A stretch of DNA of 21,641 bases from JBFLXN01 sp040755715 [NCBI: Candidatus Edwardsbacteria bacterium] (GTDB lineage Bacteria; Edwardsbacteria; AC1; JBFLXN01): contig JBFLXN010000035.1 of the NCBI GenBank assembly GCA_040755715.1, forward strand, positions 1 to 21,641, given 5' to 3'. The position numbers and the translations under genes were made by a program. The notes below the pieces were generated by a model. That model saw only the letters and a list, made by a program, of their open reading frames with translations, searched no databases and was not told where the DNA came from. Shown piece after piece: positions 2,232-21,609 of the stretch; within the stretch, counting starts at the first letter, position 1, and each line of letters starts with the position of its first letter.

Positions 2232-3101
2232 ATGGTTTTTCATACCTTAAAGATCATTTGCTTTTGTCTTGTAGGCTGGAGCAGTCTTCTCTTTGCTTTC
2301 ACCCCGTTACAGGCAGGATGTGCAAACGCCCAGACCCACCAGCCTGTAACGGGGTTCACTCTTGAAGAAATGGAACAGGGCGAACAGGAAATGATTCGTT
2401 TAGTGAATGCAGAAAGGACAAAACGAGGATTGATGACTTATGATTTTGACGAGGGGCTTCGGTTAATGGCCAGAAAGCACAGCGAAGATATGTGCCGACG
2501 CCACTATTTTTCCCATCAATCACCTGAAGGGAAAACTCCCCAAGACCGCAAAGAAGAATATTATCCCAAACTAATTGGAGGAACAGGTGAAAATATCCAT
2601 CAAATTTCCGTCTCCCCAGGATTTGAGGAACAAGGCTATGAGATGAAGCGGCTGATATCAGAGGCTCATAGAGATTTGATGTGCAGTCCAAAACATAAGA
2701 AAAATATTCTTTCCAAGAAATTTACCCATATTGGCATTGGTTTCTTTCTGACCGAAACAGAAATGTTAGTAACTCAGAATTTTGCTGAGGAAGTGGCCTT
2801 ATCAGATGAACTCTTACCAAAGATTGTTCAAAATGACTCAATAATCACGGTCAAAGGGGAAGTGCGAGGCAAGACAAATCTCAACAACCTTCAAGCCTAT
2901 CTAGTTATCCCCGACCCTAAGAAAGAATGCGATAATTACGATGGCACTTATTCTATTGGTGGATATTTTTTGCCGGTAGAAAAACTGACCGAGAGAAAAT
3001 TTAAAATTTCTTTTTCACTTGACAAGGGAAAAGGAGACTACGAATTGAAATTAGGAGAAAGAAACTATTTCTATTCTGGGATTAAACTTATCAAAGAATA
3101 A
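2232..3101 (+). CDS. Secreted CAP/SCP-domain protein (YkwD type)
   Basis: An exported protein with a CAP (CRISP/Antigen-5/PR-1; SCP) domain of the bacterial YkwD type. A hydrophobic segment at residues 5-23 is a signal peptide or anchor. The domain runs from about residue 50 to 190, with IRLVNAERTKRGL, the core block ARKHSEDMCRRHYFSHQSPEGKTP carrying the CAP histidine region, the GGTGENI motif, and LMCSPKHKKNIL followed by HIGIGF, all typical of the family. The C-terminal 100 residues look like a beta-sandwich and are unassigned. Bacterial CAP proteins are cell-surface proteins of largely unknown function. A purine-rich GGGGGAC stretch precedes the ATG. Residues 24-42, just after the hydrophobic segment, are encoded by a 14-bp inverted repeat, so the linker between export signal and domain may be a repeat insertion. 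The cleavage site (for example after ANA, residue 33) is uncertain. Confidence 0.88.
   Translation: MVFHTLKIICFCLVGWSSLLFAFTPLQAGCANAQTHQPVTGFTLEEMEQGEQEMIRLVNAERTKRGLMTYDFDEGLRLMARKHSEDMCRRHYFSHQSPEGKTPQDRKEEYYPKLIGGTGENIHQISVSPGFEEQGYEMKRLISEAHRDLMCSPKHKKNILSKKFTHIGIGFFLTETEMLVTQNFAEEVALSDELLPKIVQNDSIITVKGEVRGKTNLNNLQAYLVIPDPKKECDNYDGTYSIGGYFLPVEKLTERKFKISFSLDKGKGDYELKLGERNYFYSGIKLIKE
2301..2355. repeat. 14-bp perfect inverted repeat inside the CAP-protein coding region
   Basis: ACCCCGTTACAGGC at 2301-2314 is the exact reverse complement of GCCTGTAACGGGGT at 2342-2355, with 27 bases between. It lies in frame in the CAP gene between the export signal and the domain and encodes the segment TPLQA to PVTG. 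The ACCCCG and CGGGGT ends match those of the palindromes at 4625-4657, 9507-9527 and 20347-20374. Confidence 0.85.
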
Positions 3102-3927: not shown

Positions 3928-3953
3928 GTGTGGCTGAAGGCACTGTAAGAGTT

Positions 3954-4142
3954 AAGAAAAAAAGACCTAATGTCAGAATATAAGTAGCCCCGACATTTCC
4001 GCCAAAAACACGGCGGATAAGAGAAGGGAGAAAGAGGGTTGAGTTTTGATTTCACGGGGACACCTGTCCGCCGTCCTTGTGGGGGACGCCCGAGCCCACT
4101 CTACGACTAAAATTGTCAAACATTTCTGAGACACAGCAGTAG
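3954..4142. repeat. Dispersed repeat element, copy A (MITE-like)
   Basis: The gap between the barrel gene and the retropepsin-like gene is built from repeats. Bases 3954-3998 match 21556-21600 at 41 of 45 positions. They end in CCCCGACATTT, which is half of the palindrome seen whole at 21590-21609. A TCCGCC/GGCGGA hairpin lies at 3998-4017. The reverse complement of 4111-4142 resembles 21513-21546, sharing TTTGACAAT and a CTACT start. A GGACA-CC-TGTCC hairpin also occurs in the middle. Modules shared in different relative orientation suggest a small non-autonomous mobile or rearranged element. No coding sequence was found here. Confidence 0.65.
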
Positions 4143-4534: not shown

Positions 4535-5230
4535 ATGAAACACAATATTTTTCTAAGTATAGTCTTGCCGTATCGGAATTTCAATATAAAATCTAGTTTT
4601 TCATTGCCTTTCCGTGCTGGAGTTCACCCCGCCCTGATGAAAATCGGGGTCGGGGTGCTTCCGTGGTTAAATATCCTGCTCTTTGTTTTTGCAAATCCAG
4701 TCAAGGGAGAGCAGAAAACAGACCACAATTTGGGGTTTAGACTGGGAATAGTGGATGTAGAAGGAACTATTGGAACCGGAATAGGTCTCGGAGGACACTT
4801 AGCCTTTCCAGAAATTGCTCGTGCTTTACAGATAGAGACGAGCCTTCTTTTCACTTATGCATCCTACAATGAGTATTACCGTCGAGCGCCAGGCGGCGAC
4901 CTGTATTGGTATAAAGGTTCATTTACAGATATTTCTGTGAATGCAGACTTGAAATATCGTTTCGTTCTACAAAGGAGCCGGTGGTCCCCTTATCTAGGAG
5001 CTGGTTTGGGGATGCATTCTATTCACTATGATTACCCTGAGTGGTGGACAGCTGACCGTTCAAAACTGGAACTAGGACTTAACATTCTGGTTGGTATAGA
5101 ATATTTGACTCCCTCTAATATGAAAATTTTTACTGAGGTTAGAGGCATAGTGAGTGGCCCCGACCAACTTGGTCTTTATGGAGGTCTAGCATTTCCATTA
5201 AAGGGACGGAGCGCAACAAAAAAACGATAG
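4535..5230 (+). CDS. Outer-membrane beta-barrel protein with palindrome-modified N-terminus
   Basis: A predicted outer-membrane barrel. The region from residue 65 on has alternating strands rich in glycine and aromatics (LGFRLGIVDVEG, GIGLGGHLAF, WSPYLGAGLGMH, LELGLNILVGIEYL), like small OmpA/OmpW-type barrels. AGGAGG at 4526-4531 supports the start at 4535, but the hydrophobic export segment (WLNILLFVFANPVKG) lies unusually far in, at about residues 44-58. An in-frame ATG at 4637 would give a normal signal peptide but has no clear ribosome-binding site. The extra N-terminal sequence includes a palindrome at 4625-4657. Either the real start is 4637 or the palindrome lengthened the signal n-region. 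The C-terminus ends in basic residues rather than an aromatic residue. It follows the retropepsin-like gene by 8 bases. Confidence 0.72.
   Translation: MKHNIFLSIVLPYRNFNIKSSFSLPFRAGVHPALMKIGVGVLPWLNILLFVFANPVKGEQKTDHNLGFRLGIVDVEGTIGTGIGLGGHLAFPEIARALQIETSLLFTYASYNEYYRRAPGGDLYWYKGSFTDISVNADLKYRFVLQRSRWSPYLGAGLGMHSIHYDYPEWWTADRSKLELGLNILVGIEYLTPSNMKIFTEVRGIVSGPDQLGLYGGLAFPLKGRSATKKR
4625..4657. repeat. Imperfect palindrome with CCC(T/C)GAT core inside a coding region
   Basis: The left half CACCCCGCCCTGAT (4625-4638) pairs with the right half ATCGGGGTCGGGGTG (4643-4657) around a GAAA loop, with one unpaired base and one mismatch. The core resembles the palindromes at 9507-9527 and 14260-14278. 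It sits just before the hydrophobic export segment of the barrel protein and supplies an in-frame ATG at 4637. Confidence 0.75.
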
Positions 5231-14193: not shown

Positions 14194-14219
14194 TGTTTAT
14201 CATCTCTCATTGATTGTGA

Positions 14220-14334
14220 GAGTGCCCTTCAGTGGAAAAGCCCTTCTGGGCACGATTTCGTCCCGATGAAATCGGGACTCCCCACAGGCAGAAACCCACT
14301 CCCACACCTCGCGGGCAAAAGCCCGCTCCTACAA
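14220..14334. repeat. REP-like repeat cluster on the 3' side of the RAYT gene
   Basis: The unit GAGTGCCCTTCAGTGGAAAA... at 14220-14251 matches 14850-14881 at 30 of 32 positions. It is followed by the palindrome GTCCCGAT-GAA-ATCGGGAC (14260-14278), a degenerate unit (14285-14305), and the hairpin unit GCGGGCAAAAGCCCGCTCC (14311-14329), then TACAA. Read on the - strand the last unit is GTAGGAGCGGGC-TTTT-GCCCGC, the GTAG-plus-hairpin layout known from REP sequences recognised by RAYT proteins. Confidence 0.8.
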
Positions 14335-14835
14335 CTATCCTAAGATTTCATATTTGCACCACCAATATGGATATTCTTGTGGTTCATTGACAATCTCTTT
14401 TCTTACTGGATTATATAAACAATAGTTCATAATTTCAATATAATTTTCATTTTTCCTTATCAGGTGGTCGTAATATTGACTTTGCCAGATCTTGGGAAGG
14501 GTTTTATTGGGTTCAATTTTACTAAATAGCTCTTTTATCTTTTTGCCTATAAAACCTTTAAAACTCATCATTACCTGGGAAAGAGTTTGGTTATCTTCTA
14601 TCTTAAAAACTGTATGAATATGGTCAGGCATAGCAATTACAAAATGTAGTTCTATCCTTCTCAGTTGTTCTAACCATTTGAGCGTATTTAAAATGATTTC
14701 AAAATATTCAGGTCGAGTAAATATCTTGGTCTTTTTATAAGTAGAAGTCGTTATAAAATAATAATAACCAGGGTTTGAAAATCTGCCTTTTCTTAAGAGG
14801 TGAGAACCTTTGGCATAATTTTTTTTTCGTATTAT
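14335..14835 (-). CDS. REP-associated tyrosine transposase (RAYT, Y1/IS200-like), start codon unclear
   Basis: A Y1 single-strand transposase-like protein of the REP-associated group. The MPDHIH motif supplies the HUH metal site, and the NYCLYNPVRKEIV block supplies the catalytic tyrosine. Upstream of MPDHIH the frame stays open and encodes the expected family N-terminus (KNYAKGSHLLRKGRF, then YYYFITTSTYKK), which gives about 166 residues and normal length. No ATG, GTG or TTG occurs in this frame near the N-terminus; the best-placed codon is ATA at 14833-14835 after AAGGGGG. The only ATG start in the frame (14631) would remove the first third of the fold. A run of nine A near 14819-14827 is a likely indel spot. 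It is either a recently inactivated copy or uses a rare start. Near-identical REP-like units lie on both sides. Confidence 0.82.
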   Translation of the reverse strand: MIRKKNYAKGSHLLRKGRFSNPGYYYFITTSTYKKTKIFTRPEYFEIILNTLKWLEQLRRIELHFVIAMPDHIHTVFKIEDNQTLSQVMMSFKGFIGKKIKELFSKIEPNKTLPKIWQSQYYDHLIRKNENYIEIMNYCLYNPVRKEIVNEPQEYPYWWCKYEILG

Positions 14836-14849
14836 CCCCCTTGATGTAG

Positions 14850-14915
14850 GAGTGCCCTTCAGTGGGAAAGCCTTTCTGGGCTTGATGATAATCGTGGGCA
14901 GAAGCCCGCTCCCAC
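14850..14915. repeat. REP-like repeat cluster on the 5' side of the RAYT gene
   Basis: It starts with GTAG at 14846-14849, followed by a unit (14850-14881) almost identical to 14220-14251, then the hairpin unit GTGGGCAGAAGCCCGCTCC (14894-14912), which corresponds to 14311-14329. Order and orientation are the same as in the cluster on the other side of the RAYT gene, so the gene sits between direct repeats. The cluster abuts the HEPN gene stop. Confidence 0.8.
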
Positions 14916-19309: not shown

Positions 19310-19843
19310 TTAGTCCGCTTGGGTTGTAAAATCTATTATCGGATATTTTTGAAATGTAGACATTACCCAATCCATTCCTTTTGTTTCTTTCCAATAACTG
19401 AAACTCGAAAACCTGTAATCGTCCATTCGTTTCACATACTTATGCTTTACAGGATTGTGATGAATATAATTGAAATGCCGCCAAAAATCCTTTCGTGAAC
19501 GAATGCACTTATCCCAATAATTTTGCCAGATCTTACGGCCCTCACTATTTTCCAGCTTGTTAATTTCATACGAAAATCCTGAGTGGATTTTAGATATTAC
19601 CTTTGGCAAGTCAGAACTCTTTAGTGTTTGAAATAGAAGATGATAATGATTATCCAAAATTACCCAAGCAAATATTTTATACCCAGAGTCTTTAAACCAT
19701 TTTCTAACTTTTTCGTACAAAAGTCTCTTATCCAAGTCAGACTCCAGCACAAATTTGTTCTGGTAAGTATGACTCGTCAAGAAATAATACATATTATCTA
19801 AGTATAAATGGAATGGCTGATGTCTTCTAGATTTAAGTTTCAT
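19310..19843 (-). CDS. REP-associated tyrosine transposase (RAYT, Y1/IS200-like), intact
   Basis: A second Y1-type protein, 177 residues and of normal length. It starts with MKLKSRRHQPFHLYLDNMYYFLTSHTYQ in the family style (HLYL..YFLT). AWVILDNHYHLLF carries the HUH histidines, and WRHFNYIHHNPVKHKYV carries the catalytic tyrosine and the NPV signature; RFSSF is the usual C-terminal block. It diverges widely from the protein at 14335-14835 and so represents a different RAYT subgroup. No clear REP units flank it; instead its 5' side is a 24-bp tandem repeat shared with the end of the QueG-like gene, and no good ribosome-binding site is seen. Single chromosomal RAYT copies are usually domesticated and may mobilise only palindromic repeats. 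Confidence 0.9.
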   Translation of the reverse strand: MKLKSRRHQPFHLYLDNMYYFLTSHTYQNKFVLESDLDKRLLYEKVRKWFKDSGYKIFAWVILDNHYHLLFQTLKSSDLPKVISKIHSGFSYEINKLENSEGRKIWQNYWDKCIRSRKDFWRHFNYIHHNPVKHKYVKRMDDYRFSSFSYWKETKGMDWVMSTFQKYPIIDFTTQAD

Positions 19844-19911
19844 AAAATTCTTACGAATTAACTCCGTAAAATTCTTACGAATTAACTCCAGAATTCTTAC
19901 GGATTAACTCT
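19844..19911. repeat. 24-bp tandem repeat, 2.8 copies, covering the QueG-like C-terminus and RAYT leader
   Basis: Copies at 19844-19867 and 19868-19891 are identical except for the last two bases (AAAATTCTTACGAATTAACT as the common start), followed by a shorter variant at 19892-19911. The 24-bp length keeps frame: the repeat encodes the QueG-like tail (ELIRKNSGVNS) and supplies its stop at 19875. It ends directly at the ATG of the RAYT gene. Confidence 0.85.
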
Positions 19912-20975
19912 ACCTTGCGTTTTTTAATAATTTTCTCCAAAGCCCAGGTAGCATGGGTTCTCACCATCGGATTTTTGTCTTTAAGCATTTCTTTTAGAAC
20001 TGGAACAGCCACCGAATCCCCAATATTCCCCAGAGCGATTACAGCATTTCTTTTGATACAATCAAAATGAATCCAGCGAGTCGTCATTTGATTGTTTTTG
20101 TATTTTGTTCTGTATTCTTCCTCTGTCATTTCAAGTAGTGGAATAAGTGGCAAACAAGAGCCAACTTCTCCGTACTTAGGTTTTCTTTCTTTTGGCAGAA
20201 CTCCAGCATTTTTAGGACAAACATCCTGACAGGTAGTGCAGCCATAAAGTCTATTTCCCCAGACTTCACGATATTCCACCGGCAAGACTCCTCGCCGGTT
20301 TGTCAAATACTGTAAGCATTTTGAGACATCAAGAATATATAGTTTTACCCCGCACCTTTGCAAAGGTGCGGGGTTTACTATCGCTCCAGTAGGACAAGAT
20401 TTGATGCAAGCAACACATTCCCCGCAATCTTTTTCTAATAATTCATCTGGTTTCAGTTCAACATTAGTAATGATTTCTCCCAAAACTATTCTTGAGCCAA
20501 ATTCTTCAGTCAAGATTATTCCATGTTTGCCATACCATCCAAGTCCTGAGCGCTGGGCCATTGGTTTTTCAGCTACCGCACCACAGGAGTAAACCTTAAA
20601 TTTGCTCTGCTTGCCTACTTCTTTCCTTAGGAATTTTGCTACTTTTTCTAATCTCTTTTTTAAGTCGTAATAATAGTTTCTCCAGGTATAGCGAGCGATT
20701 CTGCCATAAGGTTCGCCGGGTTTAGTCAAATCTTCTGGTTCAGAAGTAAGATAACATTCTGCTGCCACGATGATTGATTTTGCCTCTGGCAAAACACTTT
20801 TGGGATTACAGAAAGAATCAAATTCTGCAACTTTCCAGTGAGAAGGGATGTAGCCTGACTTGAGCAATTCTTTTAAGTGAAGTGCTGTTTTTTCAAAAGG
20901 CTCAGCGGTAGTGAAGCGAATTACATCAATTCCAACTTCTTTCGCAAAATGTTTTATTTCAGATTCCAGTAACAT
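19875..20975 (-). CDS. queG: QueG-like epoxyqueuosine reductase family protein with HEAT-like tail
   Basis: The family reduces epoxyqueuosine to queuosine in tRNA using cobalamin and two 4Fe-4S clusters. The protein is 366 residues long. AQRSGLGWYGKHGIIL and GSRIVLGEIIT are conserved cobalamin-domain blocks. CGECVACIKSCPTGAI (Cys184, 187, 190, 194) and GCTTCQDVCPKN (Cys246, 249, 253, with Cys220) bind the clusters. The end (NAVIALGNIGD, then NPMVRTHATWAL) is HEAT-like, as in QueG. Two oddities: the usual FVDS segment before EKP reads VYSC, so the catalytic Asp is Ser130; and a palindrome at 20347-20374 adds about ten residues (APLQRCGVKL) between the cluster motif and YILDVSKC. It may be a QueG paralogue of different activity. 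The last residues come from a 24-bp tandem repeat. Confidence 0.85.
   Translation of the reverse strand: MLLESEIKHFAKEVGIDVIRFTTAEPFEKTALHLKELLKSGYIPSHWKVAEFDSFCNPKSVLPEAKSIIVAAECYLTSEPEDLTKPGEPYGRIARYTWRNYYYDLKKRLEKVAKFLRKEVGKQSKFKVYSCGAVAEKPMAQRSGLGWYGKHGIILTEEFGSRIVLGEIITNVELKPDELLEKDCGECVACIKSCPTGAIVNPAPLQRCGVKLYILDVSKCLQYLTNRRGVLPVEYREVWGNRLYGCTTCQDVCPKNAGVLPKERKPKYGEVGSCLPLIPLLEMTEEEYRTKYKNNQMTTRWIHFDCIKRNAVIALGNIGDSVAVPVLKEMLKDKNPMVRTHATWALEKIIKKRKVELIRKNSGVNS
20347..20374. repeat. 28-bp perfect palindrome inserted in frame in the QueG-like gene
   Basis: ACCCCGCACCTTTG is followed directly by its exact reverse complement CAAAGGTGCGGGGT. Read on the - strand it encodes residues 201-210 (NPAPLQRCGV), where QueG proteins such as the E. 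coli one pass straight from PTGAIV-x-P to the DARRC or DVSKC helix. GTAAA occurs on both sides of the palindrome on the - strand, a possible short target duplication. Confidence 0.9.
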
Positions 20976-21512: not shown

Positions 21513-21609
21513 CTACTAGTGGTCTGTCGCATAAATATTTGACAATCAGGGTGTCAAGAAAAAAAGACCTAAGGTCGAAATATGAGTAGCCCCGACATTT
21601 ATGTCGGGG
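21513..21609. repeat. Dispersed repeat element, copy B, with CCCCGACAT palindrome
   Basis: Bases 21513-21546 resemble the reverse complement of 4111-4142, and 21556-21600 match 3954-3998 at 41 of 45 positions. CCCCGACAT (21590-21598) and ATGTCGGGG (21601-21609) form a perfect 9-bp stem around TT. The copy continues to the window end with a CCCTCACCCCC tail and may be cut by it. Confidence 0.75.

What the first reader, a model, noticed from the sequence alone, without database searches (positions are those of the whole stretch)
20347..20374. Perfect 28-bp palindrome inserted in frame in a conserved tRNA-modification gene
Seen directly: two 14-base halves are exact reverse complements and lie inside the QueG-like reading frame. 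Family knowledge: in QueG proteins the first 4Fe-4S motif (CPTGAI) leads within a few residues to the DARRC-type helix; here about ten extra residues lie between, and these are encoded by the palindrome. GTAAA flanks both sides. This resembles the Rickettsia palindromic elements that insert in frame in coding genes, but with different sequence and host. The extra segment adds a cysteine between the two Fe-S clusters.
Basis: partly seen in the sequence, partly recalled or inferred. Interest (0 to 1): 0.75.

Follow-up and report, generated by a model that had tools for sequence, protein, structure and literature searches.

The report
Tiny jumping palindrome inside protein genes
A 26-letter palindrome in the middle of a tRNA-modification gene is one copy of an apparently undescribed family of miniature mobile DNA that is scattered through several groups of uncultured bacteria and often sits in protein genes without breaking their reading frame.

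Summary
Window 20347-20374 is a perfect 28-bp palindrome in frame in QueG, adding ten residues absent from 10 of 10 homologues aligned and two solved structures. The mobile unit is 26 bp (20348-20373, CCCCGCACC...GGTGCGGGG) between 4-bp direct repeats TTTA (TAAA on the coding strand). A second element of the class lies at 2302-2354 (53 bp, repeats TTCA), in frame in a CAP-domain gene.

The class (CCCCG/CGGGG inverted repeats, about 13 bp) is dispersed in genomes of the phyla of a WOR-3 MAG, an Omnitrophica MAG and a Thermodesulfovibrionales MAG. The repeats are a target-site duplication: 30 of 50 copies not used for selection match at a 4-bp register, 0-2 at other registers, and the sequence varies with the site (TAAA, TGAA, TTAA, TCAA). 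In genes, 27 of 29 inserts have a length divisible by three, against 17 of 56 in non-coding context. Identical asymmetric 25-35-bp copies occur at different sites, so the tiny unit itself moves.

It works like Rickettsia palindromic elements but is built like an extreme MITE. REP/RAYT membership fails. Its transposase was not found.

The parts
20348..20373 (.). 26-bp element: two abutting 13-bp inverted repeats, CCCCGCACCTTTG/CAAAGGTGCGGGG
20344..20347 (.). left copy of the 4-bp target-site duplication, TTTA (TAAA on the coding strand)
   Evidence: register-4 test on other copies
20374..20377 (.). right copy of the 4-bp target-site duplication, TTTA
19875..20975 (-). queG, epoxyqueuosine reductase, 366 aa, carrying ten inserted residues between CPTGAIV and LYILDVSKC
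2302..2354 (.). second element of the same class, 53 bp, outer 13 bp of the inverted repeat perfect (CCCCGTTACAGGC/GCCTGTAACGGGG)
2298..2301 (.). left 4-bp target-site duplication TTCA of the second element
2355..2358 (.). right 4-bp target-site duplication TTCA of the second element
2232..3101 (+). CAP-domain (PF00188) protein gene, 289 aa, carrying the second element in frame just behind a probable signal peptide (LLFA-FTPLQAGCANAQTHQPVTGFT-LEEM)
   Evidence: Homologues give no support for absence: 13 of 14 loci align only downstream of the site, and the one that spans it (L291) has no 19-residue gap; the case rests on the repeats alone

Best explanation
The palindrome is one copy of a family of miniature inverted-repeat mobile elements that consist of little more than two inverted ends, about 13 bp each, starting CCCCG. 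The element inserted at a TAAA in queG, duplicated the four bases, and so added 30 bp = 10 codons without a stop. Shown: the inverted repeats, the 4-bp target-site duplication, dispersal in the three phyla sampled, mobility of the 25-35-bp unit itself, and presence in genes almost only when element + 4 is divisible by three. Inferred: a transposase acting in trans makes a 4-bp staggered cut at T-R-A-A-like sites (a DDE-type enzyme is most likely), copies spread through genes and spacers, and selection removes those that shift the frame or add a stop. The inserted peptide (NPAP..R.GV, PRP...RG or TPL...LTGF by frame) is a by-product with no evidence of a selected function.
For: Ten residues absent in 10 of 10 QueG homologues aligned and in 5d08 and 5d6s. 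Two elements of the class in the window, both in frame, the top two of a sequence-blind scan. Pattern TAAACCCCN{8,30}GGGGTAAA in 24 of 147 genomes of the phylum of a WOR-3 MAG, 62 of 384 of the phylum of an Omnitrophica MAG and 24 of 245 of the phylum of a Thermodesulfovibrionales MAG, with 3, 6 and 6 hits of the reversed control (my sums of the tables). G025, the genome with the closest QueG found (60% identity), has 11, several of the CCCCGCACC subfamily. Direct repeats at register 4 in 30 of 50 copies not used for selection; 1, 2, 0, 0, 0 at registers 2, 3, 5, 6, 7; shuffled flanks mean 5.4, maximum 14. Length mod 3 = 0 in 27 of 29 copies in ORFs of at least 200 codons and 17 of 56 in non-coding context, Fisher p = 1.4e-8, window and 14 intermediate cases left out (12 of those 14 are mod 0). 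Identical asymmetric copies with different duplications: 26-bp unit in G008 with TTGA/TAAA/TTTA, 25-bp unit in G025 with TAAA/TTCA/TTTA.
Against: No autonomous copy or transposase between such ends was found in 899 kb, in 20 stretches around ends unpaired in the search listing, or as a pair of CCCCG ends around IS1380-type or DDE_Tnp_1 genes. Two adjacent 13-bp ends leave little room for an ordinary paired-end complex (inference). Deleting element plus one repeat gives IVKLYILD, whereas 10 of 10 homologues have Pro at the position of that Leu, so a later Pro-to-Leu change must be assumed. The host genome is not held, and there is no nucleotide-level empty site for queG. Homologues of the CAP gene do not support an insertion there. 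Of the 50 unselected end pairs, 20 have no exact repeat; of 100 CCCC..GGGG hairpins, 23 had none and 6 a one-sided TAAA/TTTA (some look like terminators).
Confidence: 0.78

Rival explanations
1. It is a REP (repetitive extragenic palindrome) of the GTAG kind, spread by the RAYT tyrosine transposases that the window also encodes.
For: Two RAYT-family genes in the window, one about 500 bp away; RAYTs in 87 of 147 genomes of the phylum; size and hairpin resemble REPs; REPs inside genes are known (PMC3733652 passages).
Against: No GTAG or CGTC tag; instead equal 4-bp repeats on both sides whose sequence follows the site, which HUH/Y1 enzymes are not known to make (recalled). G105 has 8 pattern hits but is not among the 87 genomes with a RAYT match (an incomplete genome could hide one). 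A GTAG-REP-like hairpin without such repeats exists separately in the window (21590-21609).
Confidence: 0.06
2. The insert is an adaptive change of QueG: the ten residues with an extra cysteine tune the iron-sulphur region, and the palindrome is coincidental.
For: It sits between the two cluster motifs; the motif cysteines and the reading frame are intact.
Against: Near-identical peptides (NPAPARRSGVK, NPAPACRSGVK) occur in unrelated proteins, RlmN and a heptosyltransferase, because the DNA element dictates them. None of the 10 QueG homologues aligned has the insert.
Confidence: 0.03
3. Copies are not transposed by a DDE enzyme; the hairpin is copied through a single-stranded or cruciform intermediate, so that the two ends pair with each other.
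For: 25-26-bp units are mobile as such although two abutting 13-bp ends can hardly be synapsed on linear duplex (inference). Stems are strong. Yeast mitochondrial GC clusters are similarly tiny palindromes with short direct repeats (PMC4478555 passages).
Against: Longer members with unpaired interiors (44 to 281 bp) have the same kind of ends and 4-bp repeats, the classic MITE picture.
Confidence: 0.2
4. It is an ordinary transcription terminator or a chance or assembly artefact.
For: 78 of the 111 stretches of the collection scan are from actinobacteria by record title (my count); many of these have a conserved CGACGGCGG context and no direct repeat of the TAAA kind.
Against: In frame inside a conserved gene, with target-site duplication and relatives at many independent sites.
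Confidence: 0.01

Closest known systems
Rickettsia palindromic elements (RPE) and Wolbachia counterparts
   Same: Dispersed palindromic DNA inserted in frame in conserved genes, giving a peptide insert (PMC10969869, PMC2229807, PMC3733652; passages read)
   Different: RPEs are about 105-150 bp, end on one side in CGTC and were described from Rickettsia; these are 24 to 281 bp, start CCCCG, have a 4-bp duplication and occur in other phyla
Bacterial MITEs (RUP, Correia/NEMIS, ERIC and others)
   Same: Terminal inverted repeats, target-site duplication, no coding capacity, many copies
   Different: Many copies far shorter, down to the inverted repeats alone; no parent insertion sequence found
GTAG- and CGTC-tagged REPs with RAYT or TIRYT transposases
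   Same: 20-40-bp hairpins, several families per genome, sometimes inside genes (PMC3733652 passages); the host has RAYTs
   Different: REPs carry a fixed tetranucleotide at one end, and the word duplication does not occur in the main text of PMC3733652; here both sides carry a site-dependent 4-bp repeat
GC clusters of yeast mitochondrial DNA (GC42)
   Same: Tiny mobile palindromes flanked by short direct repeats (PMC4478555 passages)
   Different: Organellar; direct repeats AG or ACT; mostly intergenic

Membership tests
MITE (non-autonomous inverted-repeat transposable element) | terminal inverted repeats | tested here: met
   13-bp perfect outer ends in both window elements
MITE (non-autonomous inverted-repeat transposable element) | target-site duplication of fixed length | tested here: met
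   4 bp in 30 of 50 copies not used for selection; other registers 0-2
MITE (non-autonomous inverted-repeat transposable element) | dispersed multi-copy family, the same unit at different sites | tested here: met
MITE (non-autonomous inverted-repeat transposable element) | autonomous parent with matching ends | tested here: inconclusive
   none found; MAG contigs may break at it
Rickettsia palindromic element | in-frame insertion in protein genes | tested here: met
Rickettsia palindromic element | about 105-150 bp and CGTC tag at one end (from papers) | tested here: not met
   26 and 53 bp; ends CCCCG, flanks TTTA and TTCA
GTAG REP / RAYT system | GTAG (or CGTC) tetranucleotide at one foot of the hairpin | tested here: not met
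   TTTA on both sides
GTAG REP / RAYT system | cognate RAYT gene in the genome | tested here: inconclusive
   RAYTs in the window; element-bearing G105 shows none
QueG (TIGR00276) | score above the curated cut-off | tested here: met
   268.3 bits against 200

The most novel reading that the evidence does not exclude
Several uncultured phyla share a superfamily of the smallest mobile DNA units known in cells (24-35 bp, essentially two ends and nothing else). Each lineage has its own stem sequences. The units spread by a mechanism that must work on a hairpin or cruciform rather than on two separated ends, and they have inserted in-frame peptides into core proteins across these phyla.
Probability: 0.3. 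Interest if true: 0.88.

Novelty: new variant of a known kind. Interest (0 to 1): 0.72.

Why it matters
In the papers seen, in-frame protein-coding palindromes are discussed above all for Rickettsia, with intragenic REPs in some other bacteria. Here the phenomenon appears, with its target-site duplication visible, in three sampled phyla and in enzymes such as QueG, RlmN, CarB, trigger factor and formate-tetrahydrofolate ligase. It gives a natural set of insertion-tolerant sites in core proteins, makes the question of how RPE-like elements move testable (4-bp cut, T-R-A-A site), and explains recurrent odd peptides (NPAP..GV, PRP..RG, TPL..LTGF) that can disturb annotation and phylogeny of MAG proteins. 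A mobile unit of 25-26 bp would also test the lower size limit of transposition.

Tried and rejected
REP/RAYT origin: rejected because of the site-dependent 4-bp repeats; G105 also has elements but no RAYT match. RPE membership: rejected on length and tag (against papers). IS1380-type source, considered because piggyBac-like elements have a 4-bp duplication and C-rich 13-bp ends (recalled): PF13701 matched in 6 of 24 element-bearing genomes (4 over the cut-off), and none of the 11 loci has a pair of CCCCG ends around the gene; one (L303) has a complete small CCCCG hairpin without direct repeats about 1 kb upstream of it. IS4/IS5-type source: PF01609 matched in 10 of 18 genomes, with no pair of such ends in the 18 loci; one locus (L336) has a single element end some 230 bp from a transposase gene, but that gene is an IS1182-family transposase, and L336 opens with GAGGCTGTCC, which I recall as an IS1182-like end; the neighbouring DNA is masked and was left alone. 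Autonomous copy between distant ends: pairs more than 500 bp apart with equal repeats in the element-bearing stretches were separate small elements, and the pairs from other loci (Arthrobacter, Streptomyces and the like) have unrelated ends. Ends unpaired in the listing: 20 stretches of G005 and G182 were fetched; 14 show an end pair 27-138 bp apart, 6 show none at up to 2 mismatches, and the ORFs checked in two wide intervals (L329, L331) are RNase HII, prephenate dehydrogenase/cytidylate kinase and a tRNA synthetase. Longest element (281 bp, L220): its short frames were read, not searched, and resemble no transposase that I recognise. Rfam and tRNA scans of the window: nothing. Viral contigs: no match. 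AlphaFold of QueG as a single sequence: pLDDT 37.7, not used. A first exact pattern GTAAA-N28-GTAAA did not match, because the palindrome overlaps the repeats.

Bias to bear in mind: most stretches were fetched because they hold a TAAA-flanked copy, so TAAA is over-counted; one search sets those copies aside. Genes were judged from ORFs in joined flanks, not from a gene finder. Some TAAACCCC..GGGGTAAA matches are not hairpins and are chance. In one search, 11 loci were read of the 57 genomes with a DNA match (G008 itself among the 57), 10 of the 116 with a QueG match.

Full report
What is there. Window 20347-20374 reads ACCCCGCACCTTTGCAAAGGTGCGGGGT, a perfect palindrome with no loop and the longest perfect inverted repeat of the window among those with loops up to 8 nt. 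It lies in frame in a 366-residue QueG on the minus strand, which scores 268.3 bits against the TIGR00276 cut-off of 200. On the coding strand the site reads ATA GTA AAC CCC GCA CCT TTG CAA AGG TGC GGG GTA AAA CTA TAT: the element proper is the 26 bp CCCC...GGGG, and TAAA stands on both sides. Closest is G025, 60% identical. The host of the window is not known; no genome is held for it.

More than chance. A scan blind to sequence, asking only for a 4-bp direct repeat around an inverted repeat of at least 8 bp, gives three hits in the window. The top two have 13-bp arms, start CCCCG and end CGGGG: the queG element and 2302-2354 (53 bp, repeats TTCA). The third has 8 bp and another sequence. Sixty simulated windows reached at most 12. 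The second element is in frame in a CAP-domain gene, just after a probable signal peptide; 53 + 4 = 57 = 19 codons. Homologues do not help there: 13 of 14 loci align only downstream of the site, and the one that spans it, L291 of G025, shows two single-residue gaps and no 19-residue gap. Linkers in this position vary, so the second insertion rests on its repeats alone.

A dispersed family. Several low-GC MAG loci instead have equal 4-bp repeats on both sides (L060 TCTA, L074 and L099 TAAA, L101 TTTA). The stricter pattern TAAACCCCN{8,30}GGGGTAAA then hit 24 of 147 genomes in the phylum of the WOR-3 MAG (75 hits, 3 reversed-control hits, my sums), 62 of 384 in the phylum of an Omnitrophica MAG (6 control hits), 24 of 245 in the phylum of a Thermodesulfovibrionales MAG (6 control hits), and 6 of 22 genomes reached through other loci, including a Portnoybacteria MAG. 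Some of these matches are not hairpins. Stems differ between genomes (GTTAGA, GCACC, GCCCCT, GTAGGAT, CACACC); the CCCC/GGGG ends were required by the pattern. The half-site CCCCGTTAGARA occurs 142 times in the 1.4-Mb genome G008 and 122 times in G392, with no reversed-control hits there; in G005 it is 76 against 3, in G517 10 against 0.

The flanking repeats are a target-site duplication. From 899 kb of fetched stretches plus 20 smaller ones, 89 end pairs were taken without asking for repeats. Among the 50 that had not been used to choose the stretches, 30 have an exact direct repeat at register 4, and 1, 2, 0, 0, 0 at registers 2, 3, 5, 6, 7; shuffling right flanks gives a mean of 5.4 and a maximum of 14. 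The other 20 match at 3 (six), 2 (four), 1 (five) or 0 (five) of four bases. Fifteen of the 30 are TAAA; the others are TGAA, TAGA, TGAG, TTAA, TCAA, CGAA and CAAA. The repeat belongs to the site, not to the element: the identical asymmetric 26-bp sequence in G008 has TTGA, TAAA or TTTA beside it in a fixed element orientation, and the 25-bp one in G025 has TAAA, TTCA or TTTA. Shared asymmetry also suggests that these copies descend from one unit of that size, rather than shrinking in place.

In genes, almost only in frame. For 101 elements (two in the window) the element and one repeat were removed in a script and the joined flanks were searched for ORFs. Outside the window, 29 lie in ORFs of at least 200 codons; in 27 the insert length is divisible by three, against 17 of 56 in non-coding context, ORF under 100 (Fisher p = 1.4e-8). 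Fourteen with ORFs of 100-199 codons were left out of that test; 12 of them are divisible by three. The 31-bp class (35 with the repeat) has 0 of 18 in such ORFs and the 25-bp class 0 of 7, while 12 of 21 copies of 26 bp are in them. Twenty carrier proteins were scanned with Pfam and 16 matched a family: among them CarB, RlmN, trigger factor, formate-tetrahydrofolate ligase, M48 and M20 peptidases, an RnfB-like protein, heptosyltransferases and a Ppx/GppA phosphatase (names also). In two neighbouring heptosyltransferase genes of G008, 11 homologous loci each were read: all lack the insert, 10 of 11 by exactly ten residues (gaps of 11 and 12 in the others). The insert peptide depends on frame: NPAP..R.GV, PRP...RG, TPL...LTGF. 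The window's NPAPLQRCGVK and the RlmN insert NPAPARRSGVK are thus alike because of DNA, which makes the extra cysteine incidental. In a GspJ-like pseudopilin (L222, below that family's cut-off but above that of the prepilin motif TIGR02532) and in a protein that is prepilin-like by motif only (L179), the insert ...LTGF regenerates the GFT of the N-terminal motif.

How it works. Shown: ends, duplication, dispersal, unit mobility, frame filter. Inferred: a transposase supplied in trans cuts T-R-A-A-like sites with a 4-bp stagger and inserts DNA with CCCCG ends; insertions that shift frame are lost. A DDE enzyme is the simplest candidate, but none was found: no distant end pair examined frames a transposase, and neither IS1380-type nor DDE_Tnp_1 genes in the element-bearing genomes searched have a pair of such ends around them. 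Only these two transposase families and the RAYTs were searched for. How two abutting 13-bp ends can be synapsed is open; a hairpin or cruciform substrate is a live alternative.

Against the reading. Removing element and repeat from queG leaves IVKLYILD, while 10 of 10 homologues have Pro where that Leu stands (followed by Tyr in nine, Phe in one); a Pro-to-Leu change after insertion must be assumed (the element's own NP now follows CPTGAIV). Of 100 CCCC..GGGG hairpins, 23 have no direct repeat and 6 a one-sided TAAA/TTTA. Of the 31 copies in long ORFs (window included) two are out of frame and four do not read through. There is no nucleotide-level empty site for queG, and none was obtained for another copy either: the G008 comparison is at the protein level.

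Known or new. RPEs are the closest functional analogue, MITEs the closest architecture, GTAG/CGTC REPs the closest in size (passages of PMC3733652, PMC10969869 and PMC2229807). Yeast mitochondrial GC clusters are another analogue (passages of PMC4478555), and Volvox organelle palindromes a looser one (passages of PMC2670323). An RPE paper cited there, PMC186582, is not held. Searches of the open-access library listed no description that I recognised as this family; subscription papers and preprints were not searched. I file it as a new variant of a known kind.

Noticed in passing
window 3951-3998 and 21553-21609: Two copies, 90% alike over 48 bp, of a REP-like unit (GTAG-CCCCGACATTTATGTCGGGG at 21586-21609) without 4-bp direct repeats: a classic-looking REP beside the other family.
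   Followed up: partly
window 19310-19843 and 14335-14631, minus strand: Two REP-associated tyrosine transposase (RAYT) genes; the second is only 98 aa and matches from profile position 55 on. REP-like repeats flank the second (14215-14332, 14845-14915).
   Followed up: partly
window 19843-19910: Three tandem 23-24-bp copies (TAAAATTCTTACGAATTAACTCC) spanning the 3' end of queG and the start codon of the RAYT gene, so a duplicated end encodes the last residues of QueG.
   Followed up: no
window 9486, 10475, 11073, 17953 (related at 4565): Short dispersed repeat like GCCTAGGAATTTCAATAA, once overlapping the start of lepA; purpose unknown.
   Followed up: no
L222 and L179: In a GspJ-like pseudopilin and a prepilin-like protein the element sits at the GF-T of the N-terminal motif and its own end (LTGF) restores GFT, so pilin genes may be insertion hot spots.
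   Followed up: partly
G392, G341, G342, G005 stretches (L237, L256-L270): Among 31-bp elements, 14 of 18 have the TTCG-like loop in the same orientation relative to the TAAA strand (my count): a weak hint that insertion is oriented.
   Followed up: partly
Arthrobacter and Pseudarthrobacter loci among L002-L111: A recurrent CGACGGCGG-CCCCGCACCTT..AAGGTGCGGGG-CCGCCGTCG hairpin, apparently a terminator-like element unrelated to the mobile family.
   Followed up: no
G793 (phylum of G005): Sixteen pattern hits, mostly one near-identical subfamily (TAAACCCCACACCAAAAGTTTTGGTGTGGGGTAAA), perhaps a recent burst.
   Followed up: no
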